A DNA stretch of 61,446 nt. Origin: Clostridia bacterium (GTDB lineage Bacteria; Bacillota; Clostridia; TANB77; CAG-508). The notes beneath the pieces are model-generated. The model searched no databases, was not told the DNA's origin, and worked only from the letters and a program-made list of their open reading frames with translations. The stretch is from NCBI GenBank assembly GCA_017404025.1, contig JAFRDD010000111.1:1-61446 (forward strand), written 5' to 3'. Each line of letters starts with the position of its first letter. Position 1 is the first letter of the stretch. Shown here piece by piece: positions 5,413 to 59,301 of this stretch. The position numbers and the translations under genes were made by a program.

Positions 5413-5451
5413 CAAAGGAGACTTACTTATGTAGGTCTCCTTTGAATTTTT
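5413..5451 (+). terminator. Rho-independent terminator after the endonuclease-like gene
   Basis: Stem CAAAGGAGACTTAC with GTAGGTCTCCTTTG (one G-T pair), 4-base loop, then a TTGAATTTTT run. The tail overlaps the -35 part of the next promoter. Confidence 0.8.
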
Positions 5452-5470
5452 AAAAATATGTACTATATTA
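5442..5470 (+). promoter_or_regulatory. Class-1 phage promoter, TTGAATTTTT / TACTATATTA
   Basis: TTGAATTTTT at 5442 and TACTATATTA at 5461 are exactly 19 bases apart, start to start. The same pair at the same spacing recurs before at least five other genes here. It explains why the in-frame ATG at 5458 is not the start of the next gene. Confidence 0.75.
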
Positions 5471-5496
5471 TATATGTAATTCAAAAACAAATAGTT

Positions 5497-5901
5497 ATGA
5501 AGACGTTCACCTATTTCAACCCCAATCCAACTGCTAAGATTGACAAGAAAACAGGTAGACCGAAGAGGTGGAATAAATGCGACTGTTCAATCAGGGCATT
5601 CTGCGCAGCTCTCAATCTTCCCTGGGATATTGTTTTCATGGAAATGTGTTTGGCTGCATCCAGAATCTGGGATATGCCAGATAGTCCAAAGACAATTGAA
5701 TCCTATGCTAAGGATAAGGGATTAATCAAGGTTTCACTTCCTGAATATATCACTGTTAGGGAGTTTGCTGAGAAAAATGACGGTACATATATTGTTAACA
5801 TCCGCAGTCATGTGGCTTGTGTAAAGAATAATATGATTTATGATACGTGGGATTGCGGAAGTTATAAGATGAAAACATATTATGTAGTTAAAGCAAAATA
5901 A
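5497..5901 (+). CDS. Small protein with papain-like Cys-His-Asp pattern, unknown function
   Basis: 134 residues from the ATG at 5497. An in-frame ATG at 5458 lies inside the promoter and is rejected. The protein has NKCDCSIRAFCAAL near the N-terminus, RSHVACV near residue 110 and MIYDTWDCG shortly after, an order (Cys, His, Asp) typical of papain-like or transglutaminase-like folds. Whether it is an active peptidase cannot be told. Codon use is less AT-biased than its endonuclease neighbour. It has its own class-1 promoter and a terminator at its end, so it is a single-gene unit. Confidence 0.6.
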   Translation: MKTFTYFNPNPTAKIDKKTGRPKRWNKCDCSIRAFCAALNLPWDIVFMEMCLAASRIWDMPDSPKTIESYAKDKGLIKVSLPEYITVREFAEKNDGTYIVNIRSHVACVKNNMIYDTWDCGSYKMKTYYVVKAK

Positions 5902-5932
5902 AAGAGGTTCATTAAGAACCTCTTTATTTTTT
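5901..5932. terminator. Bidirectional terminator between convergent genes
   Basis: Stem AAAGAGGTTC / GAACCTCTTT with a 5-base loop, flanked by A and T tracts on both sides. It serves the + gene ending at 5901 and the - gene ending at 5931. Confidence 0.8.
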
Positions 5933-6299
5933 AATAATCTGTTTCAGAATAATAATCATCAAAATAATCTTGCTTATCAAATTCTTCAGAATATCTTTCA
6001 TACATTATATCTTTATAATCATTGAAAGCAGATTCAATCATACAATATAATTCTTCATTATTATAGTTTATATCATATTCTGAGAAATCATAATCTTCTG
6101 AACAAGAATCAATAAGTTTGTTTATTCTGACTTTAACTTCACTTATTAATGAATCATTTACTTCAGCATCATCTAAATCATCAAGATCATCTTTATTCTC
6201 AATATATGAATATTCAGATTCAAGGTAATTTTTGACTATTTCATTTAATTCTGGCAATAATTCATTAGAAACAAATTTATTGTTATCTAAAATGGTCAT
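5931..6299 (-). CDS. Small very acidic protein, unknown
   Basis: 122 residues rich in Asp, Glu, Tyr and Ser, with a DDLDDLDDAEVND run in the middle and a YFDDYYSETDY end. No domain recognised. The composition recalls DNA-mimic or acidic inhibitor proteins of phages, but that is only a compositional resemblance. It is transcribed away from the following gene, and the two 5' ends share the AT-rich region 6300-6423. It ends in a bidirectional terminator. Confidence 0.6.
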   Translation of the reverse strand: MTILDNNKFVSNELLPELNEIVKNYLESEYSYIENKDDLDDLDDAEVNDSLISEVKVRINKLIDSCSEDYDFSEYDINYNNEELYCMIESAFNDYKDIMYERYSEEFDKQDYFDDYYSETDY

Positions 6300-6371
6300 T
6301 TAATTTAATTAGATATATTTATATCATCTCTAATATATAATAAACATTTTTCATATAGAATGTAAAAAATA

Positions 6372-6400
6372 TTGAAATTTGATTTTTAATTACTATATTA
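6372..6400 (+). promoter_or_regulatory. Class-1 phage promoter
   Basis: TTGAAATTT at 6372 and TACTATATTA at 6391, 19 bases apart. It drives the gene at 6424, whose ATG lies 23 bases past the second box. Confidence 0.75.
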
Positions 6401-6423
6401 TAATGTAAATAAAATTAAGAAAT

Positions 6424-7131: not shown

Positions 7132-7160
7132 TTGAATTTTTGAAATTAGTTACTATATTA
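7132..7160 (+). promoter_or_regulatory. Class-1 phage promoter
   Basis: TTGAATTTTTG at 7132 and TACTATATTA at 7151, 19 bases apart. It precedes the gene at 7185 and probably the run of small genes to 8522. Confidence 0.75.
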
Positions 7161-7184
7161 ATTTGTCATTAAACAACAAATATT

Positions 7185-7568
7185 ATGAAACAGAATTTTT
7201 CGAATTTTGACTTCAAGAAGGTTTTCAACACCTTCAATGGTAACATTTTCAATGTCCGTTTCAACAAGGCTGGTAACATTACTCTTGATGTGAAGAATGG
7301 GTCTGTTCTGAACACTTATCATCCGCATTCTAACCACAAGTTTACTTTCTATAAAACGCCTGATGGAGTTCTTATCCGCCATATTTCTAATTGGTCTATC
7401 TTTCCACTCAATATGAGTTATAAGTCCCGTCACATTGATAAGGAGACCTGGGGTGGATATACTCATGATGTTTACAACATCAAGTACTCTAATTTTGAAA
7501 ATATTGATGATGCAATTGTCTACTTCATTGAGTACCTCAATCTGTATCACAACATTATTAACTTCTAA
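7185..7568 (+). CDS. Unknown phage protein (127 aa)
   Basis: No family recognised. The N-terminus is Phe/Asn-rich (NFSNFDFKKVFNTFNGNIF), with beta-like segments after it and an aromatic helix at the end (DDAIVYFIEYLNLYHNI). It is first in a closely spaced set with the lipoprotein at 7582 and the genes at 7857 and 8259. Codon use (GGT, CGT, TTC, AAC) is less AT-biased than that of the endonuclease-like genes, as if adapted for expression. Confidence 0.6.
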   Translation: MKQNFSNFDFKKVFNTFNGNIFNVRFNKAGNITLDVKNGSVLNTYHPHSNHKFTFYKTPDGVLIRHISNWSIFPLNMSYKSRHIDKETWGGYTHDVYNIKYSNFENIDDAIVYFIEYLNLYHNIINF

Positions 7569-7581
7569 AAAAACAATCATT

Positions 7582-7854: not shown

Positions 7855-7856
7855 AC

Positions 7857-8522: not shown

Positions 8523-8564
8523 GAAAACATTTTTAATTTATTAACATTTTAAATAAAACACATT

Positions 8565-12276: not shown

Positions 12277-12307
12277 TTGTATTTTGCTATTTTTATGTTC
12301 TATTTTA
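12277..12307 (+). promoter_or_regulatory. Putative class-1 promoter, 21-base variant (helicase)
   Basis: TTG at 12277 and TTCTATTTTA at 12298, 21 bases apart, upstream of the helicase ATG at 12331. It is weaker than the 19-base copies. The rest of the 12126-12330 gap holds only the terminator. Confidence 0.4.
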
Positions 12308-12330: not shown

Positions 12331-14136
12331 ATGATTCATTTTACTTTTGCAGATAGTGATAATAGATATTTATTCTTAAAGTGTGATTGGACAAATGATG
12401 AATATGTTGACACATTTGATAAAGATACAAAGAAGTATGTTAGAATGCATACTTTTGAATTGTTAAAGAAACATATTAATCTTGTAGATCCAATATGTTA
12501 TTTGCCAACATATACTGGTCCACGTTTTACTCAAGACTTCATTTGGGATTATACTCAACCAAGTGGACAAAGAATACTTTGGTGTAGTATTGGACTTTGG
12601 CAAGTAATTTATAAATGGCTTAAAGAAAATAATGTTCCCTATGATGGATTAGATCCTAAAAGATTCAAAAGAAAGATGCTTCATACTTTTGATGAATTTA
12701 AGGAAATTGTTGATTCTTGGGGTCTTGCATATACACCTCGTCCATACCAATATGAGGCAGCATATAAAATCATAGAATGGAATAAATCAGTATCTCAGTT
12801 GGCCACACGTGCAGGTAAAACATTAATTTCATATATCATATTTAGATATTGTATGGAATATTTGGGAGTAAAGAAAATACTTATGATTGTTCCATCAATT
12901 GACCTTGTAAAACAAGCATATAATGACTTTAATGATTATGCAGAATTCTTTAATACTGAATGTGTATGGTCTGGTGGTAAACTTGTTGAAAGTGCTAATC
13001 TTACTGTAGGAACATTTCAAAGTCTTATTAAATTCCTTGATAGAAAAGGGAAGAAATATGATCCTCATTTCTTTGATGATTATGATTGTGTATTTGTTGA
13101 TGAAGTACATAGAGCAACAGCTGCACAAATAAAGAATATAATATCTCAGCCTTTTATGAATAAGGTTAAGATTGCTTTTGGTATGACAGGTACATTACCA
13201 AAAGAAAAGACAATTGAACATTATAGTTTACATTCTTTACTTGGTGCTAAAATTCAACAGATACAACCAAGAGAACTTATGGATGCTGGTTATATTTCAG
13301 ATATTGAAATCAATCAGTATAGAATAAATTATAAAGATTTAAATAAGCAAAAGAAACTTTTTATTAAGTGTGCAGAATATGCATTATCAACATTTGCTTT
13401 AGTTCCAAATAAGACAAATCCTAAAAAGAAAGAAAAAGTTAAACTTGAACATCCAGAATTTCTTATACAGTTTGTAAAAGATATGCCATTTGGGATTACA
13501 ATGGTAAAGAATGACATATATTCAGACAAAGATTTGACAGATGAACAGAAAGAAGAAAAGTATATTGAATTCTTAAAGAATCAAATTAAAGCATCTACAT
13601 CTACTAATCAACTTGTTGTTGAGAAGATGATGATTCATTTTATGAATGAAAGAATTGATATTCTTTGTAATGATGTTTTAAAGAATTGCCAATATAATAC
13701 ATTGGTACTTGCTCACCATACAGAATATCTTATGCATCTTGCTGAACAGATTAAGACAAGAATGCCAGATAAAATTGTATGTATGATTCACGGAGGAACT
13801 CCCGCTAAAGAACGAGACAAGATTAAACAGACATTGAAGGAAAACAATAATTGTATTCTTGTAGCATCTTATGGATGTATTGGTACTGGTATTACGCTAT
13901 CTAATCTTTGTTTTGGTGTTTTGTTTGAATCATTTAAGTCAGACATCATTAATATGCAAAGTTTGGGTAGAGGATTGGGATTAAGTAAGTATAAAGACAA
14001 ATATGTAGTATATGATTTTATTGACTGTTTTGACCCTATTGTTTCTTCTAAAGCAATCTTCAGGCAAGGTAAAGAAAAAATAAAGATTTATGAAGAAAAT
14101 AAATATGACTATAAAATTATAACCAAGTTTATATGA
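12331..14136 (+). CDS. UvsW-like superfamily 2 DNA helicase
   Basis: 601 residues (T4 UvsW is 503). The helicase motifs appear in order: a Q-like entry TPRPYQYEAA, Walker A ATRAGKT (about 159-165), motif Ia IVPSIDLVKQA, motif II DEVH (about 257-260), motif III GMTGTLPKE, motif IV LVLAHHTEYLMHLAE, and motifs V/VI in the C-terminal lobe ending QSLGRGLGLSKYKD (near 543). UvsW remodels branched DNA, unwinds R-loops and controls the switch from origin- to recombination-dependent replication in T4. About 100 residues between the two lobes are an insertion relative to T4. It overlaps the next small gene by 4 bases (ATGA). Confidence 0.85.
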   Translation: MIHFTFADSDNRYLFLKCDWTNDEYVDTFDKDTKKYVRMHTFELLKKHINLVDPICYLPTYTGPRFTQDFIWDYTQPSGQRILWCSIGLWQVIYKWLKENNVPYDGLDPKRFKRKMLHTFDEFKEIVDSWGLAYTPRPYQYEAAYKIIEWNKSVSQLATRAGKTLISYIIFRYCMEYLGVKKILMIVPSIDLVKQAYNDFNDYAEFFNTECVWSGGKLVESANLTVGTFQSLIKFLDRKGKKYDPHFFDDYDCVFVDEVHRATAAQIKNIISQPFMNKVKIAFGMTGTLPKEKTIEHYSLHSLLGAKIQQIQPRELMDAGYISDIEINQYRINYKDLNKQKKLFIKCAEYALSTFALVPNKTNPKKKEKVKLEHPEFLIQFVKDMPFGITMVKNDIYSDKDLTDEQKEEKYIEFLKNQIKASTSTNQLVVEKMMIHFMNERIDILCNDVLKNCQYNTLVLAHHTEYLMHLAEQIKTRMPDKIVCMIHGGTPAKERDKIKQTLKENNNCILVASYGCIGTGITLSNLCFGVLFESFKSDIINMQSLGRGLGLSKYKDKYVVYDFIDCFDPIVSSKAIFRQGKEKIKIYEENKYDYKIITKFI

Positions 14137-15667: not shown

Positions 15668-15697
15668 TTGAAATTTTGAAAAAAGATACTATAATTA
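15668..15697 (+). promoter_or_regulatory. Class-1 promoter of sigma factor 1
   Basis: TTGAAATTTT at 15668 and TACTATAATTA at 15687, 19 bases apart. The 75-base leader that follows contains a 12-base perfect palindrome. Confidence 0.75.
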
Positions 15698-17526: not shown

Positions 17527-17556
17527 GGTGGTTATTTTGAAAATAACCACCTTTTT
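17527..17556. terminator. Terminator overlapping the end of the second endonuclease-like gene
   Basis: Stem GGTGGTTATTTT / AAAATAACCACC with a tight loop, then TTTTT. It ends the sigma unit on the + strand. The minus-strand gene's last codons (for WLFSK and the stop) are read from the same hairpin. Confidence 0.8.
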
Positions 17557-18818
17557 AAATCATTTATATTAAAAAATTCAAACCAATTTAAATTATTTTC
17601 TTTTGCTTTATTTCTTTTATCTACATCTCTTGTAGTAAATGTAATAATTGCGTTATTATAGTATTTTGTATTTTTTTCTTTCCAAATGTTTATTAAATTA
17701 ATGCAATATTCATCTTCTTTATTATATGGTCTATTTCCATGAGTCCAATGATAATTACATTCTATATATGTATCAATAGACGGAATATAAAAATCACAAG
17801 TAAATGGATATTTTATACTTTTATATTGTCTTACTATATCAGGGTATTTTTCTTTTATTAAAATATAGCTTTCATCTTCTGTATTAGATACATTAAATGT
17901 ATGATTTTTCTTTTTAGTTTTATTTACTTTATCTTTAATTAATTGCGACTGTGAAGGGAATTCAAAACCATATTTTTTTAATGATGTTGCTTTTCTCTTT
18001 TCTTCTGCTTCTATAGTATGTGTTAATTTATGTTCACTTGGTATTTTCCAATTATGGTCTACTCCATAATGTTCTAAACATGTTTGTTTATATTTTTCTT
18101 GAAATTCTTTTACTTGAAATACATTTTCTACTCCATATTTTTCTAAACATGTTTGTTTAGCTTTATTTCTATTTGTATATGTTTCATTACCATATCTTTC
18201 TATTTTTGTTTGTCTTGATTTATCATTTACCCCAGGAATAAGCCATGAATATTCTACCCCATATTTTTTAATACATGTTTGCTTTATTTTATCTAATGCT
18301 TCTAATGAACATCCCCCATTTATTACTCCATATCTTTCAAGACATGTTTGTTTATTTTTTTCTCTATTAGTATATGTTTCATCACCATATTTTTCTAGTT
18401 TTGTTTGTTTTGTTTTTAATGGATTAACAAAATTTTCATCACCATATCTTTCTAATTTTGTTTGTTTTGTTTTTAACGGATTAACAAAATTTTCATCCCC
18501 ATATCTTTTTAATTTTGTTTCTTTTGATTTTTTATTACGTATTTTTGCTTTACAACTTATATTTGAACAACATATATCATAAGGATATTTTAAATTACCA
18601 TTATATTTTACTATATTTCCACATATTGGACAAATTGGAATAATTTCTATATTATGTATGATTCTTAAATATGATTCTTTTGGTGTATTTGTTACATTAT
18701 CAGAATATCGTTGTAATAAATAATCATTATATTTCAATGGCAATTTATTCCATTTTATTCCATTTTTCATTTTTTTAACATATTGTATTATTTCATATTC
18801 AAGTTCTATATTAATCAT
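17532..18818 (-). CDS. Homing-endonuclease-like protein with many tandem YG repeats
   Basis: 428 residues, related to the protein at 4375-5409. A zinc-finger-like CPICG and CCSNISC pair lies at about residues 57-85. About nine repeats of the type RYGDEN-KTKQT-LE, some only 19 residues long, follow. The C-terminal nuclease-like domain has YPFTCDFYI, YIECNYHW and TTRDVDKRN matching the other protein's YPYDSDFYI, YIDYNG and TDLDVRKRN. Codon use is extremely AT-rich. The gene is inserted, antisense, between two + strand units, and its 3' end runs into a terminator hairpin. Mobile nuclease behaviour is inferred from class; no cleavage site is known. Confidence 0.65.
   Translation of the reverse strand: MINIELEYEIIQYVKKMKNGIKWNKLPLKYNDYLLQRYSDNVTNTPKESYLRIIHNIEIIPICPICGNIVKYNGNLKYPYDICCSNISCKAKIRNKKSKETKLKRYGDENFVNPLKTKQTKLERYGDENFVNPLKTKQTKLEKYGDETYTNREKNKQTCLERYGVINGGCSLEALDKIKQTCIKKYGVEYSWLIPGVNDKSRQTKIERYGNETYTNRNKAKQTCLEKYGVENVFQVKEFQEKYKQTCLEHYGVDHNWKIPSEHKLTHTIEAEEKRKATSLKKYGFEFPSQSQLIKDKVNKTKKKNHTFNVSNTEDESYILIKEKYPDIVRQYKSIKYPFTCDFYIPSIDTYIECNYHWTHGNRPYNKEDEYCINLINIWKEKNTKYYNNAIITFTTRDVDKRNKAKENNLNWFEFFNINDLKRWLFSK
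18408..18535 (-). repeat. Tandem 57-bp repeats in the second endonuclease-like gene
   Basis: A 57-base unit (19 codons, encoding RYGDENFVNPLKTKQTKLE) occurs twice in direct succession with only a few changes: GGATTAACAA at 18421 recurs at 18478. More degenerate units continue through the rest of the array. Confidence 0.8.
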
Positions 18819-24133: not shown

Positions 24134-24176
24134 TTGTTAAATTAATTTATTTATATTTTTTAATTTCTTATATAGT

Positions 24177-24186
24177 TAAAAATAAA
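24177..24186 (-). promoter_or_regulatory. Late promoter motif (1437-aa fibre)
   Basis: TTTATTTTTA on the minus strand, 43 bases upstream of the fibre start and just past the preceding stop codon. Confidence 0.5.
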
Positions 24187-27226: not shown

Positions 27227-27228
27227 AA

Positions 27229-27808: not shown

Positions 27809-27839
27809 TTGAAAAAACATTGTATGATATGCTATATTA
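27809..27839 (+). promoter_or_regulatory. Class-1 promoter, 21-base variant
   Basis: TTGAAAAAAC at 27809 and TGCTATATTA at 27830, 21 bases apart. It is divergent from the late promoter on the other strand and precedes the gene at 27870. Confidence 0.5.
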
Positions 27840-27869: not shown

Positions 27870-28910
27870 ATGAGTTCAAATGGTACAGAAATAAAAATTA
27901 GAAAGCCAATTATTTACTTTGATAATGTTGATATAGAGTCAGTGGCTGAAGCAAAATCTGTTGAAATAGAAGCAAACACCCAATTAGATAAATTAAAAGG
28001 TGATTTGCTATCACTTGCTATGTCTACACCTAAAGATATTACACCTAATGGTGAAAATCCAGTAAATTATATAAAAGAAGAAGTAGATAATTTAATTGAG
28101 GAATTATATGAAGCATTCAGTAAATATTTTGAAGCAAATTTTGTAAACGGAATATTAGACGAATGGGCATACTCATATCCTAATGATTCAAAAGATATAT
28201 ATGATAATTGTAAAACAGATGATGAGATAAATAAACAAGCTTTTCCCAAAGATAAACATGTAGAAATTAAACATGATTTAAATAAGTTTACATTTGCGCC
28301 TGATGATGCTATTATTGATTGTGCAATAAACAGATCTTATCAAAATGTAATGTTTAATAACGGAATTCTTAATATATATGATAAGTATGTTATAATATTA
28401 GGAAATAGTTTGTTTGTAGATTATGATGGGCAATTCTTATTTAGAAGTTTAGATGCTGCAATTGAAGTTTTAGACAAGAAATTTGATTTGCATACAATAG
28501 ATTATATATCAAAAGATTTTATAGAAAATCATCCTCATTTCTTTCCTTCTATTATTGAGAAAATGGAAAAAACTAATTATTATGATTTACCTAAAGATGA
28601 ATGGGATAAAGAAATCAATAAATTTAAAGATGCTTTTAATAATTTTGTCAATAATAAATATGCTATGGACATAGATACTATGGAAGTTTTGCATCATGGT
28701 ATTGTTATGGTTTTAAGAAATGAAATATATAATAAAGCAGATATTCATATTAAATCAGTATTTGAATTAGTGTCTGGATTTAAGAAATCTGATGAATATA
28801 AAGATATAATAGCAGAGGCTCAACATAAGAAATTTGAAGAATCAATTATAGAGGTAGAACCAATATTAAATCAAATTAATAAACGACCTCAAGTAAAAAT
28901 TGAATCATAA
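27870..28910 (+). CDS. Unknown phage protein (346 aa)
   Basis: No family recognised. Mostly helical and acidic, with a possible coiled coil near the N-terminus (VAEAKSVEIEANTQLDKLKG) and a compact middle (CAINRSYQNVMFNNGILNIY, then YVIILGNSLFVDYDGQFLF). It lies between a class-1 promoter and the split DNA polymerase gene. I see no 3'-5' exonuclease (DxE) or motif A signature, so it is not the missing N-terminal half of the polymerase. Confidence 0.6.
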   Translation: MSSNGTEIKIRKPIIYFDNVDIESVAEAKSVEIEANTQLDKLKGDLLSLAMSTPKDITPNGENPVNYIKEEVDNLIEELYEAFSKYFEANFVNGILDEWAYSYPNDSKDIYDNCKTDDEINKQAFPKDKHVEIKHDLNKFTFAPDDAIIDCAINRSYQNVMFNNGILNIYDKYVIILGNSLFVDYDGQFLFRSLDAAIEVLDKKFDLHTIDYISKDFIENHPHFFPSIIEKMEKTNYYDLPKDEWDKEINKFKDAFNNFVNNKYAMDIDTMEVLHHGIVMVLRNEIYNKADIHIKSVFELVSGFKKSDEYKDIIAEAQHKKFEESIIEVEPILNQINKRPQVKIES

Positions 28911-28930
28911 ATAAGTGTATTTCTATTTTA
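28900..28930 (+). promoter_or_regulatory. Class-1 promoter, 21-base variant (DNA polymerase part)
   Basis: TTGAATCATA at 28900 and TTCTATTTTA at 28921, 21 bases apart, overlapping the end of the previous gene. The polymerase ATG is at 28962. Confidence 0.45.
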
Positions 28931-28961
28931 TAAATACAAATACAAGTAATAAATTTGACAT

Positions 28962-30898: not shown

Positions 30899-31343
30899 AT
30901 GAACAGAATTTTGTTAGGAGGGACATGTGCTGGTTCAACTTGGAGAGATGAACTTATTGAAGGTTTAAAAAAAATATAATTGTGAATGGTTTAATCCAGT
31001 TGTAAAAGATTGGACACCAGAATGCCAAGCAATTGAAGAAGATGAAAAGAATAATAAATGTAATATTCATCTTTATGTAATTACTCCTGAAATGCAAGGT
31101 GTATATAGTATTGCAGAAATTATAAATTCTTGTTGGCAAGCACAACTATATGGAACAAAAGTTAATCATGTTATATTTTGTGTAATGGGATATTGGGATG
31201 AGAAACAATTAAATTCATTTAGAGCTACACTATCATTATGTCAAAATATTGCTCCTGAAAGATTTGCTGGTGCTATAATTAATAATGTTTCTGAAATAAT
31301 TGAAATATTAATTGATGTTGGTTTAATTAGTTTAAAGTATTGA
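30899..31343 (+). pseudogene. Nucleoside 2-deoxyribosyltransferase-like gene with a frameshift in an A8 run
   Basis: From the ATG at 30899 the frame reads MNRILLGGTCAGSTWRDELI and stops at a TAA right after eight A residues (30967-30974). In the +1 frame the protein continues without a break to 31343: YNCEWFNPVVKDWTPECQ, then CNIHLYVITPEMQGVYSIAE. The joined product (~147 residues) has the order of the nucleoside-2-deoxyribosyltransferase-like family (GGxCxxxTWRD, FNPxVxDW, VITPExxGxxSIAE). The shift could be an assembly or sequencing error in the homopolymer, a true mutation, or slippage-dependent expression. By family it would act on nucleosides or nucleotides. Confidence 0.7.
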
Positions 31344-31368
31344 AATTTATAAAAAGTATTCTATATTT
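31340..31368 (+). promoter_or_regulatory. Class-1 promoter (GrpE operon)
   Basis: TTGAAATTTA at 31340 and TTCTATATTT at 31359, exactly 19 bases apart. The GrpE ATG is at 31395. Confidence 0.65.
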
Positions 31369-31394: not shown

Positions 31395-31952
31395 ATGGTA
31401 TTTGATACAGAAAACATTAAAAATCTTGAATTTAACGAAGAAAATTTTGAAGAGTTGAAAAATAATGCAATTGCTATCATTGATGAAGTTAAAGAAGCAC
31501 ATACTGCAATTCATGACAGTAATGCAATGATGACAGAACAAGTAAAAACACTTGGGGACTTAAATGATAAGTATCTACGTGCATTAGCAGATTATCAGAA
31601 TCTTCAGAAACGTACCGTTACACAAGTAAGTAACTCTAAACTTGATGGAAAGGTATCACTTTTAAAAGATATACTTCCTATTATTGATGATTTTGAAAAA
31701 GCAAAAGATGCTGGTGAATTTTCTGAAGGAGTTGAAATCATCTATAATAAGTTTATGAATATGCTTCAAACAAATAATGTTGAAGTAATTAATCCTAAGG
31801 AAGGTGATGCATTTGATGATACTGTTGAAGAAGCAGTTGCAGCTATTCCTAATCCTGATAAGGAAAAGAATACTGTATGTTATGTTCAATTCAAGGGATA
31901 TAAGATTGGTGATAGAATTATTAGATATGCTAAAGTAGGTGTATATGTATAA
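31395..31952 (+). CDS. grpE: GrpE-like nucleotide exchange factor
   Basis: 185 residues, about the usual GrpE length. The long N-terminal helix ends in the signature YLRALADYQNLQKR. Next come SLLKDILPIIDDFEKA (dimer helix bundle), EGVEIIYNKFMNML, and the beta-wing domain with AFDDTVEEAVAAIP and GYKIGDRIIRYAKVGVYV. GrpE drives ADP release from DnaK. A phage copy would tune the host DnaK chaperone cycle, perhaps for virion assembly or replication; no DnaK or DnaJ gene is seen in the window. Its end overlaps the next gene by 8 bases, and it leads an operon of small early-type genes. Confidence 0.9.
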   Translation: MVFDTENIKNLEFNEENFEELKNNAIAIIDEVKEAHTAIHDSNAMMTEQVKTLGDLNDKYLRALADYQNLQKRTVTQVSNSKLDGKVSLLKDILPIIDDFEKAKDAGEFSEGVEIIYNKFMNMLQTNNVEVINPKEGDAFDDTVEEAVAAIPNPDKEKNTVCYVQFKGYKIGDRIIRYAKVGVYV

Positions 31953-34640: not shown

Positions 34641-34959
34641 ATTTAGATTAAAATCATTAGATGGTCCTGACCAAGAAATGACAGTATTAGTTGGTAATGA
34701 TGGAGATGTACATATTACAGTATGGGATTATGATGAAAGATTTCACCAAATGATACCTCATAATATAAGAATTGGAATGAGTCCAAACAGTGGAGACCCA
34801 AATGAAAATGTTGAAGATATTAAATATTTAAAAGGAGCATTAAGAAATCTTGCTATGGAATTCAAATATCAGAATGGAGAAATTTCAAAAGAGGAGATTG
34901 AAAGATATAGGAATGCACCAAAGGTACCAACATATTTAGAATCTTGGTTTGAAGATTGA
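34630..34959 (+). CDS. Unknown phage protein (109 aa)
   Basis: Start at the ATG at 34630 (a second ATG follows directly). FRLKSLDGPDQEMTVLVGND, then DVHITVWDYDERFHQ: a beta-rich N-terminal half and a helical C-terminal half (DIKYLKGALRNLAMEFKYQN). No family recognised. Last gene of the GrpE-led run before a new promoter. Confidence 0.55.
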   Translation: MMNKFRLKSLDGPDQEMTVLVGNDGDVHITVWDYDERFHQMIPHNIRIGMSPNSGDPNENVEDIKYLKGALRNLAMEFKYQNGEISKEEIERYRNAPKVPTYLESWFED

Positions 34960-34984
34960 ATTTTTAAAAGTTTTATCTATATTA
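34956..34984 (+). promoter_or_regulatory. Class-1 promoter
   Basis: TTGAATTTTT at 34956 and ATCTATATTA at 34975, exactly 19 bases apart. It precedes the gene at 35008 and rules out the TTG at 34987 as its start. Confidence 0.7.
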
Positions 34985-36592: not shown

Positions 36593-37135
36593 TTAGATTT
36601 TATAATCATTTCTATCAAACTTATCTTTTTCTTCCCAACCTGCTTTTAAGCAGTTTGAAATATGATTAGACATAGCTACATAGAAATCTTTTAACTCATT
36701 AACAGTATCGAAAGTATAATATACTGATGCATTGCCTTTCTTAAATTTGAATGTAACAGGTAAATTTTCACCATCTGTTGCCATTGCTAAATCAAATGCA
36801 TTTTTATAATTCATTTGATTTTCTTTATCTAAATGAACTGAATTTCCGTGCCATTTGAAACAATTAGCAATTCTATATTCTGTAGCTTTATTAATTATTT
36901 CAAATATTGCTTCTTCAATCATATGTAAAGATGGTTTTGTATCAAAAATTATACTTTGCCAAGTAGCATTTCCAGTAGGAACAAGTTTTCCAGTATTTAC
37001 AAATCTACTTTTCTTCAAAACTTTTTCTTCTTCAGTTAAAATAGTTTTGTTGAAATTTACTATGTATTTACCATTTGCTGCTACTGAAATAGGTTCAAAT
37101 TCTTCAACTTTTCCAAAATTATTAAATGCATTCAT
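36593..37135 (-). CDS. DUF4376-like tail fibre accessory protein (180 aa)
   Basis: The C-terminal half has the pattern FDLAMATDGENLPVTFKFKK, then FDTVNELKDFYVAMSNHISN and CLKAGWEEKDKF, which I recognise as the DUF4376-type domain found in phage tail-fibre accessory or assembly proteins. The first half is beta-like. It is 23 bases downstream of the 2934-residue fibre on the same strand, the expected place for a fibre chaperone or tip partner. Role by family and context. Confidence 0.65.
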   Translation of the reverse strand: MNAFNNFGKVEEFEPISVAANGKYIVNFNKTILTEEEKVLKKSRFVNTGKLVPTGNATWQSIIFDTKPSLHMIEEAIFEIINKATEYRIANCFKWHGNSVHLDKENQMNYKNAFDLAMATDGENLPVTFKFKKGNASVYYTFDTVNELKDFYVAMSNHISNCLKAGWEEKDKFDRNDYKI

Positions 37136-45963: not shown

Positions 45964-46032
45964 ATTTTATTAAAGTATATTTATTTATTAATTTTTTCAG
46001 TCTATGTTTCTATATGAACATTACTGTTTATT

Positions 46033-46042
46033 AAAAATAAAA
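46033..46042 (-). promoter_or_regulatory. Late promoter motif (giant fibre)
   Basis: TTTATTTTTA on the minus strand followed by ATAAACA, 69 bases before the fibre start. Confidence 0.55.
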
Positions 46043-54374: not shown

Positions 54375-54566
54375 TTAATCATCTAATTCCTCAAAGTATT
54401 CCTGTACAACAAAAGATGACTCATCTTCAGTAAGGAAAAGATAGTTACTGTCTTCAGACATTAAGAATACTTTATCTTCATATAAAGCTGATAAATATTC
54501 ATCTAGAATATCACCACCGTATTCAGCAGCGTCACTCTCATCTGTAAATATATATACTTTTGCCAT
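54375..54566 (-). CDS. Small acidic protein, first gene of the adhesin operon (63 aa)
   Basis: MAKVYIFTDESDAAEYGGDI, then YEDKVFLMSEDSNYLFLTED: strongly acidic, small alpha/beta. No family recognised. It has an exact TTTATTTTTA motif 30 bases upstream and lies 39 bases ahead of the collagen-like gene. Confidence 0.6.
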   Translation of the reverse strand: MAKVYIFTDESDAAEYGGDILDEYLSALYEDKVFLMSEDSNYLFLTEDESSFVVQEYFEELDD

Positions 54567-54596
54567 ATCTATACTTATAAATCAAAATCTATTTAA

Positions 54597-54606
54597 TAAA
54601 AATAAA
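54597..54606 (-). promoter_or_regulatory. Late promoter motif (adhesin operon)
   Basis: TTTATTTTTA on the minus strand, preceded by G and followed by TTAAATAG, 30 bases before the ATG at 54566. Divergent from the class-1 promoter of the macrodomain gene. Confidence 0.55.
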
Positions 54607-54624: not shown

Positions 54625-54655
54625 TTGAACTAAGTTTTTCAATTTTTCTATATTA
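54625..54655 (+). promoter_or_regulatory. Class-1 promoter, 21-base variant (macrodomain gene)
   Basis: TTGAACTAAG at 54625 and TTCTATATTA at 54646, 21 bases apart. The gene starts at 54687. Confidence 0.5.
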
Positions 54656-54686: not shown

Positions 54687-55631
54687 ATGGTTAAAGTAGA
54701 AAGAGGTAAAACTATTTTTGAATCTAATGCCCAAACATTGGTAAACACTATAAATTGTGTTGGTGTAATGGGCAAAGGGATAGCTCTTGAATTTAAGAAT
54801 CGTTATCCCGCAATGTTTGATAAGTATAAAACATTCTGTGATAAGGGTGTATTTAAACCAGGTGTTCTTTGGATTTATAAAGCTGAAGATGGCAAATGGG
54901 TTCTTAATTTTCCGACAAAAGTAGATTGGAGAAATCCTTCTGAGATGTCTTATATTGAGGAAGGCCTTAAGAAATTTGTTGAAATTTGGAAGGAAAAAGG
55001 AATTACTTCAATTGCATTTCCTTTACTTGGTTGTTCAAATGGTGGTCTTAATCCTGATGAAGTAATTCCTCTTATGGAAAAATATCTTAATCAGTGTGAA
55101 GGTCTTGATGTGACAATTTATGATGATAGGGAACCTGAAGTAGAAGCTCCTGTTATTAATGCTACTGCAGAATTCTTTGGTGATGAAAATCCTAAGGAAG
55201 TTGTTGTTGAATCAAAACCTTTAGTTGATGAAGAACCACCTAAGGTTACTGAAAAGATTGAAATATCTGATGAGGCTATTATTCAACGAATTGAAGAAAT
55301 TAATTCAGAAAAACAGAAATTTGATTCCTTGAATGGTGGAGACAAAACAATGGGTGAAGAAAATGAAAATCCAGGAACAGAACCTGAACCAGAATCTGAA
55401 CCTGTTGAAATTAAAGAAGATAAATGTGTGGATGAAACACCTGATGAGGATAATGAAATCCTTAGAGAAATCATTGCTGAAAGAAAAGCTGTAAATGATG
55501 CTGTTGATAAAATTCTTGAAGATTTTCAAAAGGGAGATAATTCTCCTGAGTATAGAAAAACCGTAGCAAGAAAAATTGTTAATGTAGTTAATCGTAGGGG
55601 ATTCCCTGCTGGTAGTATTTTTCAAATATAA
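54687..55631 (+). CDS. DarG-like macrodomain protein (putative ADP-ribosyl-DNA hydrolase)
   Basis: 314 residues. Residues 1-150 are a macrodomain of the DarG/TARG1 type: NTINCVGVMGKGIALEF (binding loop), WVLNFPTKVDWRNPS with Lys78 at the position of the DarG catalytic lysine, and IAFPLLGCSNGGL. DarG removes ADP-ribose that DarT puts on thymidine in single-stranded DNA, and DarTG acts as an anti-phage defence, so a phage copy may counter it (inference). There is no DarT toxin next to it. The C-terminal half is an acidic linker (NPGTEPEPESEPVEIKEDK) ending in a basic stretch (RKTVARKIVNVVNRRGFPAG) that could bind nucleic acid. Confidence 0.8.
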   Translation: MVKVERGKTIFESNAQTLVNTINCVGVMGKGIALEFKNRYPAMFDKYKTFCDKGVFKPGVLWIYKAEDGKWVLNFPTKVDWRNPSEMSYIEEGLKKFVEIWKEKGITSIAFPLLGCSNGGLNPDEVIPLMEKYLNQCEGLDVTIYDDREPEVEAPVINATAEFFGDENPKEVVVESKPLVDEEPPKVTEKIEISDEAIIQRIEEINSEKQKFDSLNGGDKTMGEENENPGTEPEPESEPVEIKEDKCVDETPDEDNEILREIIAERKAVNDAVDKILEDFQKGDNSPEYRKTVARKIVNVVNRRGFPAGSIFQI

Positions 55632-55874: not shown

Positions 55875-55929
55875 AGATATAAAAAATAATATTTTTTCAT
55901 GATAAAAAGTTCAAAAATTTGAATAATTT

Positions 55930-55960
55930 TTGAATTTTTTGTCATGCTTTTTCTATTATA
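55930..55960 (+). promoter_or_regulatory. Class-1-like promoter of sigma factor 2
   Basis: TTGAATTTTT at 55930 and TTCTATTATA at 55951, 21 bases apart. It overlaps a possible TTG start in the sigma frame, arguing that the true start is downstream. Confidence 0.5.
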
Positions 55961-56004
55961 AATTATACGGCAGAAGTGTCTATAAATATAGATTAATAAA
56001 TGCC

Positions 56005-57255
56005 GTGAGTAGAAGTATTAATAGTAGTTTAAACAAAACCAGTCAAGCAAAATTAAAAAAATTAAAGAAACAACTTGAGTTTATATCATTTATTGATGAT
56101 AAAGACCGATTTATAACAATATTTTCAGATATACTAAAAAGTGATATAAAATCTTTAAAAGGATGTAGTGAAAGAGCCGTAACAGATTATTACTTAGAAT
56201 CATTAAATGAATTGTTAGATTCTGTATCTGAAATAGACCCTGACTTTTTTGATAAAGTAAAGGTTAAAGCCCGTGGAAAATTGGCTCATTATTACACAGA
56301 TGCAAAAACCTATGATAATAACATTGATATTTATTTCAATGATGTTAAGAGGGAATATATAAAATCCCCGATGTCAGATAGTGACAATTTGGAATTTCTT
56401 CCAGAAAATCGTGAAACTTTCATAAAGAATAATCTTAAATTAGTTATTAACTGTGCAAAGAGATACCAAAATATGGGTCTCCCATTTGAAGATTTAATAC
56501 AAACAGGAAATTATGGACTTTGCGTTGCTTTTGATAAGTATGATACAGAAAAAGCAAATCTTAAGAGTACTATCATAAATAAAATAAATGATTCTGAATT
56601 AGAAAGCTTTACATATAAAGATGCCGAAGAAATCATTAGAGATTCATTTACTTATTCTAAAGATCTTGAAAGAACATTGAATCTTATTCCACAAGATGGA
56701 TTTGCAGAAAAAGAAGAATTTATTGCATGGGCAAAGAAAAATATTAAGACAGCTATATTTGCTTCAGTTGCATTCCAATGGATTAGAGCATATATTCTTC
56801 TTGAACTTAATAAACGTTCAAAAGTAATTAGAGTACCAAAATCTGCAAGAGCAAAAACAGATGAAGAAGGAAATAAAGTTAATTCAGCTATTACAATAAT
56901 CAATCTTGATAGTGTAAATCCATATACTGATGATACATATTATGATAATGAACTTGCTAAGGTTACAAATGAAGAATTTGCTCTTGAAGATGAATATGTA
57001 GAAAATATTGAAAAACAAGATTTGTTAAAAGAAGTTGTTGAAAAGGCATTATGTAATTTATCCCCAACAGATAGAAGAATAATTAAGAAAAGATTTGGTG
57101 TAGGAATGCCATATCAATTATCAATTAATGAAATATCTGAATCCGAAGGAATTCCTGCAAATAAAGTTAAATATTCCGTTACACAATCTTTAAAAACAAT
57201 TGCTAATTCATTAAATGAAAAGGAAAAGCTTGAAATTATGGCTTTAATACAATAA
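56005..57255 (+). CDS. Sigma-70 family RNA polymerase sigma factor 2
   Basis: About 416 residues from a GTG at 56005. No ATG exists until much further in, and the TTG at 55930 lies in the promoter, so the start is uncertain. Region 2 begins near 140: NLKLVINCAKRYQNMGLPFE, then DLIQTGNYGLCVAFDKYD. An insertion of about 60 residues precedes FASVAFQWIRAYILLELNKR and VIRVPKSAR (region 2.3/2.4). Region 4 is near 350-400: LSPTDRRIIKKRFGVG, then LSINEISESEGIPANKVKYS (helix-turn-helix). It differs clearly from sigma factor 1 and has no capsid-targeting-like N-terminus. By family it programs host RNA polymerase; it may serve the late TTTATTTTTA class. Confidence 0.8.
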   Translation: MSRSINSSLNKTSQAKLKKLKKQLEFISFIDDKDRFITIFSDILKSDIKSLKGCSERAVTDYYLESLNELLDSVSEIDPDFFDKVKVKARGKLAHYYTDAKTYDNNIDIYFNDVKREYIKSPMSDSDNLEFLPENRETFIKNNLKLVINCAKRYQNMGLPFEDLIQTGNYGLCVAFDKYDTEKANLKSTIINKINDSELESFTYKDAEEIIRDSFTYSKDLERTLNLIPQDGFAEKEEFIAWAKKNIKTAIFASVAFQWIRAYILLELNKRSKVIRVPKSARAKTDEEGNKVNSAITIINLDSVNPYTDDTYYDNELAKVTNEEFALEDEYVENIEKQDLLKEVVEKALCNLSPTDRRIIKKRFGVGMPYQLSINEISESEGIPANKVKYSVTQSLKTIANSLNEKEKLEIMALIQ

Positions 57256-57277
57256 ATTGAAAACCAATAAGTTAAAG

Positions 57278-57308
57278 AATCCAATGAATCATTTCATTGG
57301 ATTTTTCT
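57278..57308 (+). terminator. Rho-independent terminator after sigma factor 2
   Basis: Perfect 11-base stem AATCCAATGAA / TTCATTGGATT with TCAT loop, followed by a T-run. Confidence 0.85.
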
Positions 57309-57342
57309 ATATTATATATTATAGCATACATTTACAAAGAAG

Positions 57343-57371
57343 TTGAATTTTATTTTTTATTTACTATATTA
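57343..57371 (+). promoter_or_regulatory. Class-1 promoter (topoisomerase)
   Basis: TTGAATTTTA at 57343 and TACTATATTA at 57362, exactly 19 bases apart. The gene starts at 57394. Confidence 0.75.
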
Positions 57372-57393
57372 AATTGAATTTAAAGTACTTTAT

Positions 57394-59289
57394 ATGGCAA
57401 AAAAGATAGAAGAGAAATATAAAGAATTATCAGAACGTGAACATATTTTGCTTCGTTCCGGTATGTGGGTTGGTTCTATTAAAGAAGAAGCAAAGACAAT
57501 GTTTCTGTATAATTCCGACTCTGAGGTGATTGAACAAAGAGAAGTTAGATATACTCCTGCAATGCTTAAAGTTGTTGATGAAGTCATATCTAATTCTTGT
57601 GATGAATTTCGTAGAAAAGATAATCTTGGTTTAACAGATATTTGGGTTACTCTTAATGAGAACGGCTGGATTACTATTAAAGATAATGGTGGTATTCCAG
57701 TTGTTAAACATAAAGAGGCTGGTGTTTATGTTCCTGAATTTATATTTGGCCGTCTTCGTACATCAAGTAATTATGATGATACTGAGGACCGTAATGTTAT
57801 TGGAACAAACGGTGTTGGTGGTTCATTAGCAAATGTATTCTCTAAAGAATTCATAATTGAAACTTGTGATAAGAAAAATAAGTTCCATCGTTCTTGGTCA
57901 AACAACATGGAAAAAGCTAATGATGACCTTAAGATTGAGAAATGTACTGACCATTATACACAGACAAAATTCTTACTTGACTATGAGAGATTTGATGGAC
58001 AGAAATGTTTCAATCTTGATTTTGTAGATATTATTGAAAAGAGATGTATTGATGCAGCTGCAGCAAACATTGGATTGACTGTTCATTTTGAATATAAAGA
58101 TGGTGAAGATTCAAAGAAAAGCAAATGGAAGTTTAAGAAATTTGATGAATATATTGATCTTTATTCAAACTTTGTAGAAATTTCTGATGGTGTAAAGTTT
58201 GAAGATGAACAGAAGAAAGTATGGATTTATCCTTCTGGTAATATTAATATTGGTTTTGTAAATGGCGCTGAATGTAGTAAGGGTACTCATATTAAGGCTG
58301 TTAGAAATGAAATCAATAATAAAATAATTGAATTTCTTGAGAAGAAGCATAAGATTGAATTGAAATCACAGGTAGGTGTAGATAACAAATATTCAATGTT
58401 TATGATTATTGATGTATCTAATCCTGCATATAATTCTCAAACAAAGGAAGAACTTACAACTTCTCCAGAATCATTCTCAAGAGAATTTGGATATATTCCT
58501 TGTCCAGATAAATTCTTAACTCAGATTACTAAATCTGAAATTATCAATATAGTTCTTGATTGGTATAAGCAGAAATCTGAAGCTGAAGATCTTGCAAAAA
58601 TTAGAAAACTTAATAAGGAAGCTGGAAAGAAACTTCTTCGTGGTGATAAGTTTATTAACTGTACATCAAGAAAAAGAGAAGAGAAGGAACTTTGGATATT
58701 TGAGGGAGATTCTGCAAAGGCAGGCTTTAGAGTATCAAGAAATCCTATTACACAGGCTGCATACATTATGCGTGGTGTTCCTATGAATGTATTTGATTTA
58801 AGTCCTGTGCAAATTATGAAGAACCAAGTCTTCAGTGATATTATCAATATCATGGGTCTTAAATGGGGAGAACGAAATGATGCTTCTGCATTAGCATTCA
58901 ATAGAATAGTAATTAGTTCTGATGCAGATGCTGATGGACATCATATTGCTGGTCTACTTATGTTATTCTGTAATAAATTCCCTGAATTGTTTGAACAGGG
59001 TATTGTATGTAGAAGTATTTCTCCAATTATCATTGCAGAAAAAGGTAAAGATCATAGAAGTTATTATACATTAAAGGAATATAAGAAAGATGAAAAGAAT
59101 CTTAAGGGATTCAAGATTAAGTATATCAAAGGACTTGGTACTCTTGAAAATACATATTATAGAGATATGATGCAGAATCCTCATTTCCAAGTTTATACAA
59201 AGGATGATCTTGCTGATGCTACTTTTAGACATTGGCTTGCTAAAGGTATTGCTGAGGAAAGACGTAATGCACTTAAAGAAGAAGTATAA
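57394..59289 (+). CDS. DNA topoisomerase II large subunit (T4 gp39/gp60-like, GyrB-type)
   Basis: 631 residues with both halves of GyrB: a GHKL ATPase domain (VVDEVISNSCDEFRRKD near 60; DNGGIPV near 96; GTNGVGGSLANVFS near 138) and a TOPRIM domain (IFEGDSAKAG near 437, then ISSDADADGHHIAGL with the metal-binding DxDxD near 509). In T4 these functions are split between gp39 and gp60; here they are one protein. With the gp52-like protein encoded 17 bases downstream it would form the ATP-dependent type II enzyme that relaxes and decatenates phage DNA, helping replication start. Preceded by a class-1 promoter. Confidence 0.9.
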   Translation: MAKKIEEKYKELSEREHILLRSGMWVGSIKEEAKTMFLYNSDSEVIEQREVRYTPAMLKVVDEVISNSCDEFRRKDNLGLTDIWVTLNENGWITIKDNGGIPVVKHKEAGVYVPEFIFGRLRTSSNYDDTEDRNVIGTNGVGGSLANVFSKEFIIETCDKKNKFHRSWSNNMEKANDDLKIEKCTDHYTQTKFLLDYERFDGQKCFNLDFVDIIEKRCIDAAAANIGLTVHFEYKDGEDSKKSKWKFKKFDEYIDLYSNFVEISDGVKFEDEQKKVWIYPSGNINIGFVNGAECSKGTHIKAVRNEINNKIIEFLEKKHKIELKSQVGVDNKYSMFMIIDVSNPAYNSQTKEELTTSPESFSREFGYIPCPDKFLTQITKSEIINIVLDWYKQKSEAEDLAKIRKLNKEAGKKLLRGDKFINCTSRKREEKELWIFEGDSAKAGFRVSRNPITQAAYIMRGVPMNVFDLSPVQIMKNQVFSDIINIMGLKWGERNDASALAFNRIVISSDADADGHHIAGLLMLFCNKFPELFEQGIVCRSISPIIIAEKGKDHRSYYTLKEYKKDEKNLKGFKIKYIKGLGTLENTYYRDMMQNPHFQVYTKDDLADATFRHWLAKGIAEERRNALKEEV

Positions 59290-59301
59290 GTTACTATATT
59301 A
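59273..59301 (+). promoter_or_regulatory. Class-1 promoter overlapping the end of the topoisomerase large subunit gene
   Basis: TACTATATTA at 59292 is perfect. TTAAAG at 59273, 19 bases before, is a one-base variant of the TTGAAA box and lies inside the previous gene. It would give the gp52-like gene extra transcription. Confidence 0.5.

What the first reader, a model, noticed from the sequence alone, without database searches (positions are those of the whole stretch)
5442..59301. A phage-specific promoter class with fixed 19-base spacing
The pair TTGAA(A/T)TTT and TACTATATTA recurs at 5442, 6372, 7132, 15668, 34956 and 57343 with start-to-start distance exactly 19; 31340 has TTCTATATTT at 19, and 59273 has TTAAAG at 19. 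Looser 20-21-base copies are at 12277, 27809, 28900, 46053, 54625 and 55930. Nearly all precede non-structural genes (sigma factors, topoisomerase, GrpE, polymerase part, small genes). It resembles a sigma-70 promoter rather than the Bacteroidota TTTG / TAnnTTTG type, so it probably needs a phage sigma factor.
Basis: seen in the sequence. Interest (0 to 1): 0.75.

Follow-up and report, generated by a model that had tools for sequence, protein, structure and literature searches.

The report
Phage-only promoters of rumen giant phages
A group of giant gut viruses of bacteria carries its own kind of gene start signal, spaced with one-base precision and different from the signal their bacterial hosts appear to use, which suggests that the virus brings its own switch to redirect the host's gene-reading machine.

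Summary
The motif is real and far beyond chance. TTGAAWTTT-N10-TWCTATATTA, with a fixed 19-base start-to-start distance, occurs exactly 4 times in the window (0 in 100 shuffles). On 11 phage-like contigs of the bin 44 sites lie within 2 mismatches: 39 between genes (12% expected), 31 with an ATG 15-35 nt downstream. A motif search from random seeds recovers it here and in two IMG/VR relatives. It recurs in relatives up to 410 kb. The full promoter occurs in 4 records of a collection of 84,980 species genomes, two of them clearly such phages. Seven named or large relatives show no excess; three or four have host-type TTTG/TAnnTTTG promoters. Among annotated genes class I precedes 5 non-structural and 0 virion genes; a second, late-like element (TATTTTTA) precedes 21 virion and 0 non-structural genes; 37 and 18 have neither. 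No phage RNA polymerase was seen; a sigma-70-family protein is encoded (56005-57255). Best reading: a non-structural-gene promoter class served by host core polymerase with a phage sigma. Promoter: nearly certain. Which sigma: unproven. Correction: the motif keeps Bacteroidota promoter spacing but lacks the host's T-6 G-5.

The parts
5442..5470 (+). class I promoter, exact copy; gene starts at ATG 5497
   Evidence: terminator-like stem overlaps its -35
6372..6400 (+). class I promoter, exact copy; ATG 6424 (235 aa, unknown)
7132..7160 (+). class I promoter, exact copy; ATG 7185 (127 aa, unknown)
   Evidence: my simple gene caller kept an overlapping minus-strand ORF here instead of 7185-7568
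15668..15696 (+). class I-like, 2 mismatches (TACTATAATT); ATG 15773 is 76 nt away
31340..31368 (+). class I promoter (TTCTATATTT) before GrpE gene 31395-31952
   Evidence: PF01025, 7.9e-36
34956..34984 (+). class I promoter (ATCTATATTA); ATG 35008
57343..57371 (+). class I promoter, exact copy, before topoisomerase II large subunit 57394-59289 and subunit A 59307-61052
27809..27839 (+). class II-like element (TTGAA, distance 21, TGCTATATTA); ATG 27870
28900..28930 (+). class II element (TTGAA, distance 21, TTCTATTTTA) before a DNA polymerase part 28962-30218
54625..54655 (+). class II element (distance 21) before macro-domain gene 54687-55631
12277..12307 (+). class II-like element (TTGTA, distance 21, TTCTATTTTA) before helicase gene 12331-14136
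55930..55960 (+). class II-like element (TTGAA, distance 21, TTCTATTATA) upstream of the sigma gene
56005..57255 (+). sigmaA, sigma-70-family protein, GTG start (by comparison with relatives), 416 aa
55966..56007 (+). predicted hairpin leader pairing over the GTG start of sigmaA
542..554 (+). class III (late-like) element TTATTTTTAATTA before tail sheath 619-3618
3673..3685 (+). class III element before baseplate-like protein 3715-4299
24173..24185 (-). class III element before the 1437-aa ORF 19820-24133
46028..46040 (-). class III element before the 2934-aa ORF 37159-45963
54593..54605 (-). class III element before the minus-strand cluster beginning at 54375-54566

Best explanation
The motif is the core of a promoter (class I) used by a clade of T4-related giant phages of probable Bacteroidota hosts for non-structural genes: many small unknown genes, topoisomerase, DNA ligase, a NAMPT-like gene, GrpE. 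SHOWN by sequence: a -35-like box TTGAAWTTT, 10 free bases, a -10-like box TWCTATATTA (T22 A23 ... T26 T27, counting the first T of TTGAA as 0), then often TG(TA) whose G lies mostly at offset 33 in this phage and 34 in the relatives; position between genes, mostly 15-35 nt before ATG; presence in these phages and near-absence elsewhere; a separate element (TATTTTTA, no -35) before virion genes. INFERRED: transcription begins at or beside that G; host core RNA polymerase does the work; promoter choice is made by the phage-encoded sigma-70-family protein sigmaA (56005-57255 and orthologues), so that the phage redirects host polymerase; class III is the late promoter, possibly served by the second sigma-like protein (sigmaB, bin contig C116).
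For: Spacing and shuffle tests. Intergenic 39/44 in this phage, 34/38 G001, 29/31 G002, 16/18 G009, 14/17 G010. Expectation-maximisation from random seeds returns it in this phage, G001 and G009. Mostly one-stranded excess in 11 of 15 IMG/VR records (e.g. G001 38 vs 3 control, G002 32 vs 0, G009 18 vs 0; G003, 19 vs 0, is identical to G001 over the 17 kb compared; the other four records have 1-4 matches). Full promoter in only 4 records among 84,980 species genomes (assignment). Gene-class split. Host-type TTTG..TAnnTTTG promoters clear in PTm1 (19 of 41 upstream TAnnTTTG at 22-24 nt, control 0) and absent at that spacing upstream of genes in this phage, G001, G002 and G010. T-6 G-5 absent: 1 of 167. 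SigmaA carries regions 2.1-2.4 and 4 (SigA 8h3v, E 1e-17; Sigma70_r2 E 1.8e-7) with a recognition helix unlike that of SigA. Full-length sigmaA occurs in 4 of 13 motif-bearing records searched with the profile (G001, G002, G003, G007) and in 0 of 7 motif-less relatives, three of which give short, weaker matches (E 3.5e-14 to 7.6e-8); also in G009, G010 and the bin phage. No multisubunit polymerase motif (D[FYLMI]DGD) in a plausible polymerase ORF.
Against: No transcript data. SigmaA is also present in G020, G021 and G022, which lack the consensus class I motif: G020 shows a TTGAA..20..CTAT variant, G021/G022 at most an AT-shifted one. Nine of 13 motif-bearing records hold no sigmaA, among them motif-rich G004, G005, G008, G012 and G013 (probably fragments). 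37 of 42 annotated non-structural genes have neither class I nor class III in the 130 nt upstream. SigmaA's own gene has a 20-22-spaced or unclear promoter, not class I. With no host-type promoters found upstream of genes, how the first sigmaA would be made is unexplained.
Confidence: 0.55

Rival explanations
1. Class I is read by the host's own primary sigma (Bacteroidota sigma-ABfr type) as a variant promoter, perhaps with a phage activator on TTGAAWTTT in the manner of T4 MotA (recalled); sigmaA serves another class.
For: Geometry equals the host promoter: TTTG-to-TA distance 23, within 22-24 of PTm1; T-12, A-11, T-8, T-7 kept; a T precedes TTG in 0.48 (own) to 0.92 (G001) of sites. In G001 17 of 38 sites also hold a TAnnTTTG 5 nt further downstream. 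Unless a factor is carried in the virion, early genes must be readable by the host.
Against: T-6 G-5, near-invariant in Flavobacterium johnsoniae (PMC6847099, passages), is missing: T28 G29 in 1 of 167. TAnnTTTG at offset 27 in only 2/44 own, 0/31 G002, 1/18 G009 and 2/17 G010 sites. The motif is nearly absent from cellular genomes.
Confidence: 0.28
2. Class I is an ordinary sigma-A promoter of a Bacillota host, the organism in whose bin the contig lies.
For: TTGAAW-N16-TATATT resembles TTGACA-N17-TATAAT; the bin has several sigma factors in a pattern that I read as a sporulating Bacillota; RUG343, which holds a 410-kb relative, is also labelled Firmicutes.
Against: Phage genes have no Shine-Dalgarno: 0 of 313 against 17 of 40 genes in three host contigs of the bin. 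Phage DnaK is closer to the Bacteroidales bin RUG244 (54%, 636 bits) than to the bin's own copy (48%, 476 bits plus a 57-bit piece). PTm1, pT24 and MA9V-1 have Bacteroidota hosts as annotated; PAU is annotated as a Sphingomonas phage, but a reference title in PMC10537231 puts its host in Sphingobacterium. No motif excess on other contigs of the bins.
Confidence: 0.07
3. The second sigma-like protein (sigmaB) reads class I, and sigmaA reads class III or II.
For: SigmaA and class III co-occur even where the class I consensus is not seen (G020-G022). A class III-type element stands just upstream of sigmaB itself.
Against: SigmaB was recognised only in G001, G002 and, cut off by a contig end, in this bin, so its range is poorly sampled; the G001 copy has no Pfam match at E 0.01 and its PHROG sigma match is weaker than sigmaA's (1.6e-12).
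Confidence: 0.15
4. The motif is a binding site of a transcription factor or another regulatory mark, not the polymerase recognition site.
For: Two boxes about two helical turns apart with rigid spacing are also typical of regulator sites.
Against: Not palindromic; oriented towards the gene; narrow distance to ATG; in class III a -10-like element alone stands in a similar place.
Confidence: 0.05

Closest known systems
Bacteroidota primary-sigma promoter (TTTG / TAnnTTTG), as found in Tenacibaculum phage PTm1
   Same: TTG box, TTTG-to-TA spacing 22-24, T-12 A-11 T-8 T-7 (PMC6847099 passages)
   Different: mostly A at -6 and no G at -5 (T28 G29 in 1 of 167), extended AWTTT after TTGA, C at -13, fixed 19 spacing, TG(TA) at the presumed start
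Sigma-70/sigma-A promoter (TTGACA-N17-TATAAT)
   Same: TTGA.. and TATATT in the right order
   Different: 16-nt spacer and much longer, stricter conserved boxes
T4 early/middle/late promoter programme (recalled; PMC2988020 seen only in a search listing)
   Same: T4-related phage (portal, terminase, polymerase, topoisomerase), separate promoter elements for non-structural and virion genes
   Different: the class III sequence TATTTTTA is not the T4 late TATAAATA (recalled); the non-structural class is phage-specific here, whereas T4 early promoters use host sigma-70 (recalled)
Sigma factors of group 2.2 jumbo phages (Lak, PTm1; Iyer et al. 2021, PMC7824862, passages seen)
   Same: phage without RNA polymerase that encodes sigma factors predicted to recruit host polymerase
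   Different: in the passages read no promoter sequence is given; sigmaA is full length only in part of the motif clade, not in PTm1, Lak-B4 or PAU

Membership tests
Bacteroidota sigma-ABfr promoter | TTTG (-33) 22-24 nt (start to start) before TA of the -7 element | tested here: met
   class I distance 23 when T precedes TTG; that T in 0.48 (own) to 0.92 (G001) of sites
Bacteroidota sigma-ABfr promoter | T-6 G-5 of TAnnTTTG | tested here: not met
   T28 G29 in 1 of 167 sites requiring only TTGAA-N17-TATATT
Promoter | between genes, oriented, narrow distance to start codon | tested here: met
Promoter | transcription starts just downstream | not testable with these tools
   no RNA data for an uncultured phage
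Phage-sigma-dependent promoter class | restricted to the phage, absent from host genomes | tested here: met
   of the 4 records two are clade phages (L179, L184), L183 has weak matches and L178 none in the 8 kb held
Phage-sigma-dependent promoter class | phage encodes a sigma-70-family factor | tested here: met
Phage-sigma-dependent promoter class | sigma and motif co-occur across phages | tested here: inconclusive
   full sigmaA absent in all 7 motif-less relatives, but present in G020-G022 without the consensus motif and not found in 9 of 13 motif-bearing records
Phage-sigma-dependent promoter class | sigma directs core polymerase to the motif | not testable with these tools
Sigma-70 family (sigmaA) | conserved regions 2 and 4 | tested here: met
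   region 2 E 1.8e-7; region 4 E 0.0017, below the curated cut-off alone; profile against PDB SigA aligns 2.1-2.2, weakly 2.3-2.4, and 4
T4 late promoter (for class III) | TATAAATA -10 element without -35, before virion genes (recalled) | tested here: not met
   no -35 and virion genes, but the sequence is TATTTTTA

The most novel reading that the evidence does not exclude
These giant phages have left the host promoter code: in this phage, G001, G002 and G010 no TTTG/TAnnTTTG pair at host spacing was found upstream of genes, and non-structural and virion genes use two different phage-specific elements, both lacking the host's G-5. If so, even the first round of transcription needs a phage sigma factor, which would have to be carried in the virion and injected with the DNA, a sigma-only counterpart of the injected polymerases of N4 and crAss-like phages (recalled).
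Probability: 0.17. Interest if true: 0.78.

Novelty: new variant of a known kind. Interest (0 to 1): 0.55.

Why it matters
Sigma factors are known in giant phages without RNA polymerase, but in my nine paper searches (open-access library only) I found no description of the promoters they would serve in phages of Bacteroidota. A motif this sharp, shared by relatives up to 410 kb and almost absent from the cellular genomes scanned, gives a direct handle: it predicts transcription starts, helps to sort unknown genes into non-structural and virion sets, marks contigs that belong to these phages inside mixed bins, and offers a candidate sigma-promoter pair orthogonal to the host for Bacteroides genetics. 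It also poses a testable question about how such a phage begins transcription.

Tried and rejected
Host-promoter reading: the G001 consensus holds TATATTTG at offsets 27-34, which looked like a host -7 element displaced by 5 nt. Rejected as general, because it occurs at that place in only 2/44 own, 0/31 G002, 1/18 G009 and 2/17 G010 sites, against 17/38 in G001.

Terminator-promoter fusion as a general feature: with loose criteria it barely exceeds shuffles (own 15 vs 9.8, G001 13 vs 8.1, G002 6 vs 7.65, G010 7 vs 3.7, G009 4 vs 3.65). With perfect stems of 9 bp or more it is real but in a minority: own 4/44, G001 1/38, G002 2/31, G009 0/18, G010 3/17, against 0.0 expected in each.

My first gene-class test (own phage, p = 0.001) counted a PTm1 stretch with a DUF7487-like gene as structural. 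I replaced it by a test on annotated PTm1 product names only, in which I also allowed a run of six T in class III and asked only for the 130 nt upstream of each gene. Related phages are not independent rows; with this phage alone the strict counts are 3 non-structural/0 virion for class I and 0/6 for class III.

The class III pattern is of low complexity: its reversed form has 32 matches in this phage against 68 forward, and 57 against 74 in G001; its placement before virion genes, not its number, carries the case.

Covariation of the sigmaA recognition helix with the -35 box (G009 and G023: Q at one helix position and mainly TTGAAATTT; five others Y; G021 T; G022 A) rests on two cases and is not used. 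Early k-mer ranking was dominated by rare GC-rich words. PAU, Lak-B4 and LR756500 show no excess of host-type promoters (5 vs 20, 12 vs 19, 16 vs 13), so the contrast with host-type relatives rests on PTm1, pT24, LR756504 and more weakly MA9V-1; placement upstream of genes was tested in PTm1 only. Whole-genome counts of the host-type pattern also exceed control in G001 (27 vs 9), G002 (23 vs 10) and G022 (13 vs 1), but upstream of genes at 22-24 nt there are 0, 0 and 1.

Two records that I first took for phage contigs are not proven so: L183 (Alistipes bin) matches clade proteins only over a repetitive stretch, and L178 (RUG244) matches none in the 8 kb held of a 42-kb contig. In the Alistipes bin a second near copy lies on another contig, C193.

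Rows dropped: bin contigs C38 and C99 (one site each, one inside a gene, one with no start downstream in the stretch held) were left out of the 'own' counts from then on; with them it is 40 of 46 intergenic (ORFs of 50 aa or more).


Full report
WHAT WAS CHECKED. The window is contig C49 of a 2.38-Mb, 176-contig bin. Its genes and those of sister contigs are those of a T4-related large phage: topoisomerase II subunits, DNA polymerase part, sigma factor, T4-type portal and terminase, DnaK, tail sheath and baseplate by homology to Tenacibaculum phage PTm1. The nearest named phages by portal are Sphingomonas phage PAU, Tenacibaculum PTm1/PTm5/pT24, Chryseobacterium MA9V-1/2 and the Lak phages, at 26-35% identity, with uncultured giant phages at 28-38% (20 rows seen of 1598). 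The host annotated for PAU is doubtful: a reference title seen in PMC10537231 (passages) assigns it to Sphingobacterium.

THE MOTIF. TTGAAWTTT followed at exactly 19 bases by TACTATATTA stands at 5442, 6372, 7132 and 57343; 15668, 31340 and 34956 are near copies. In five contigs there are 9 exact pairs at distance 19 and none at any other distance between 12 and 29; in the window 4 exact against 0 in 100 shuffles. In the whole bin 44 matches within two mismatches against 4 for the reversed pattern. The -10 box is better written TWCTATATTA. Beyond it a TG(TA) often follows: TGTA begins at offset 32 in 21 and at 33 in 4 of 44 own sites, and at offset 33 in 20 of 31 (G002), 24 of 38 (G001), 7 of 7 (G023), 6 of 17 (G010) and 4 of 18 (G009) sites; TG alone at 33 in 14 of 18 G009 and 11 of 17 G010 sites. 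If TATATT is the -10 hexamer, that G falls about where transcription should start (inference).

PLACEMENT. 39 of 44 sites on the 11 phage-like contigs held are intergenic (12.2% expected), 34/38 in G001, 29/31 in G002, 16/18 in G009, 14/17 in G010; an ATG lies 15-35 nt after the motif in 31/44, 25/38, 13/31, 9/18 and 9/17. A motif search by expectation maximisation from random seeds in upstream regions returned the same motif among its best solutions in this phage and G001 and as the best in G009.

WHO HAS IT. An exact scan of IMG/VR gave 60 stretches. Of 15 records examined whole, 11 have a clear, mostly one-stranded excess (for example G001, 376 kb, 38 vs 3; G002, 410 kb, 32 vs 0; G009 18 vs 0) and four have 1-4 matches; G003 (19 vs 0) is identical to G001 over the 17 kb compared and adds nothing independent. 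A scan of 84,980 bacterial and archaeal species genomes with the full promoter (exact, TGTAA included) gave 9 stretches in 4 records: six on one 410-kb contig in bin RUG343, which is G002, and one each in a Bacteroidales bin (RUG244), an Alistipes bin from yak and a Methanobrevibacter bin. The Methanobrevibacter-bin contig is a phage of this clade (65% covered, proteins up to 85% identical to G001); the Alistipes-bin contig has weak matches only, and the 8 kb held of the RUG244 contig none. Elsewhere in those four bins the motif has no excess over the reversed control, apart from one near copy on a second contig of the Alistipes bin. Seven named or large relatives (PAU, PTm1, pT24, MA9V-1, LR756500, Lak-B4, LR756504) have no clear excess (up to 3 mismatches: 3 vs 5, 8 vs 7, 5 vs 14, 4 vs 2, 55 vs 49, 27 vs 39, 42 vs 38).

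HOST. Phage genes lack Shine-Dalgarno sequences (0 of 313; 17 of 40 in three host contigs of the bin), phage DnaK is nearest a Bacteroidales bin among five bins compared, and PTm1, pT24 and MA9V-1 have Bacteroidota hosts. I infer a Bacteroidota host and co-binning with a Bacillota genome (sigma-factor set, read from memory of such genomes).

RELATION TO HOST PROMOTERS. PTm1 shows the host type clearly: TTTG then, 22-24 nt on, TAnnTTTG in 19 of 41 upstream sites (control 0), and the random-seed search finds it. In this phage, G001, G002 and G010 no such pair stands upstream of genes; one in G009 and G022, two in G020, none in G021 and G023. Class I keeps the host geometry but lacks T-6 G-5 (1 of 167), which passages of PMC6847099 describe as near-invariant in Flavobacterium johnsoniae, with 4-5 nt to the start site.

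OTHER CLASSES. Class II: TTGAA with CTATWTTW at distance 21 (9 own, 4 G001; reversed control 1 and 0 at that distance), among others before two DNA polymerase parts and the macro-domain gene; a 20-22-spaced version or none precedes sigmaA genes. Class III: TATTTTTA without -35 before sheath, baseplate, neck, portal, terminase, prohead protease and head completion genes; in this phage 58 of 68 matches are intergenic against 13% noncoding DNA, with 32 matches for the reversed pattern, and it is the best random-seed motif in G021 and G022. In the strict test over five phages, class I: 5 non-structural, 0 virion; class III: 0 non-structural, 21 virion; neither: 37 and 18 (Fisher p = 1.5e-5; rows not independent). 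An operon-wise version with a broader gene list also gave two non-structural genes under class III (one in G002, one in G010).

THE SIGMA CANDIDATES. SigmaA (window 56005-57255, GTG start) has region 2 (Pfam 1.8e-7) and a weak region 4. A five-member profile matches SigA chains (1e-17) over 2.1-2.2, weakly 2.3-2.4, and 4, with an insert of about 65 residues between 2.2 and 2.3; the 4.2 helix reads ANKVKYSV where that SigA has TRERIRQI. Full-length sigmaA is in G001, G002, G003, G007, G009, G010 and G020-G023 and in none of the seven motif-less relatives; nine of 13 motif-bearing records searched hold none. G020-G022 have sigmaA but not the consensus motif; G023 has both. SigmaB (C116, cut by the contig end; G001; G002) matches the same PHROG and has a class III-type element directly upstream in C116. 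The motif D[FYLMI]DGD occurs only in the G002 gyrase and in two ORFs of about 180 aa in G001 and G022. Iyer et al. 2021 (PMC7824862, passages) state that jumbo phages of this group encode sigma factors and no polymerase; a 2026 review (PMC13282480, passages) says the same in general terms and mentions phage-specific promoters without giving a sequence in the passages read.

VERDICT. A real, phage-specific promoter class. Its use by host core polymerase with a phage sigma is the best explanation (0.55); reading by host sigma with help is the main rival (0.28).

Noticed in passing
window 542-554(+), 3673-3685(+), 24173-24185(-), 46028-46040(-), 54593-54605(-): Late-like promoter element TATTTTTAWWWA without -35 box, before virion genes; seen in this phage and in most of the eight IMG/VR relatives scanned, hardly in G009.
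   Followed up: yes
window 55966-56007 and L192-L200: SigmaA genes start with GTG in 8 of 9 phages and often have a predicted hairpin leader; in this phage and G010 the stem pairs over the GTG start with a compensated change (CGGCA/TGCCG against CGGTA/TACCG). Possible translational control of sigma (z -2.2 and -2.5 against mononucleotide shuffles, -1.0 in G023, +0.5 in G002).
   Followed up: partly
window 5442; C110:14411-14439(-), C117:2991-3019(-) and 6084-6112(-), C26:683-711(+): Intrinsic-terminator-like stems whose 3' arm holds part of the -35 box and whose T-tract reaches into the spacer: a fused terminator and promoter, in a minority of sites.
   Followed up: partly
window 28921-28961 and C174 about 36661-36700: Two DNA polymerase parts on different contigs share a near-identical leader (CTATTTTATAAATACAAATACAAGTAATAAATTTGAC), as if co-regulated.
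   Followed up: no
window 4375-5409 and 17532-18818; C117:10202-11305: One DUF7487 protein and two others match the same unannotated stretch of PTm1 (about 23.8-24.1 kb); perhaps mobile or homing genes.
   Followed up: no
bin contigs C26, C29, C36, C49, C100, C110, C116, C117, C158, C167, C174: About 306 kb held of phage-like DNA (by motif, and for all but C26 and C116 by homology to PTm1) inside a bin rated 100% complete and 4.63% contaminated; a 410-kb relative sits inside RUG343 and a fragment inside a Methanobrevibacter bin. The motif marks such co-binned contigs.
   Followed up: partly
window 31395-31952; C100:8918-10858: The phage carries its own GrpE and DnaK; the GrpE gene has a class I promoter.
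   Followed up: no
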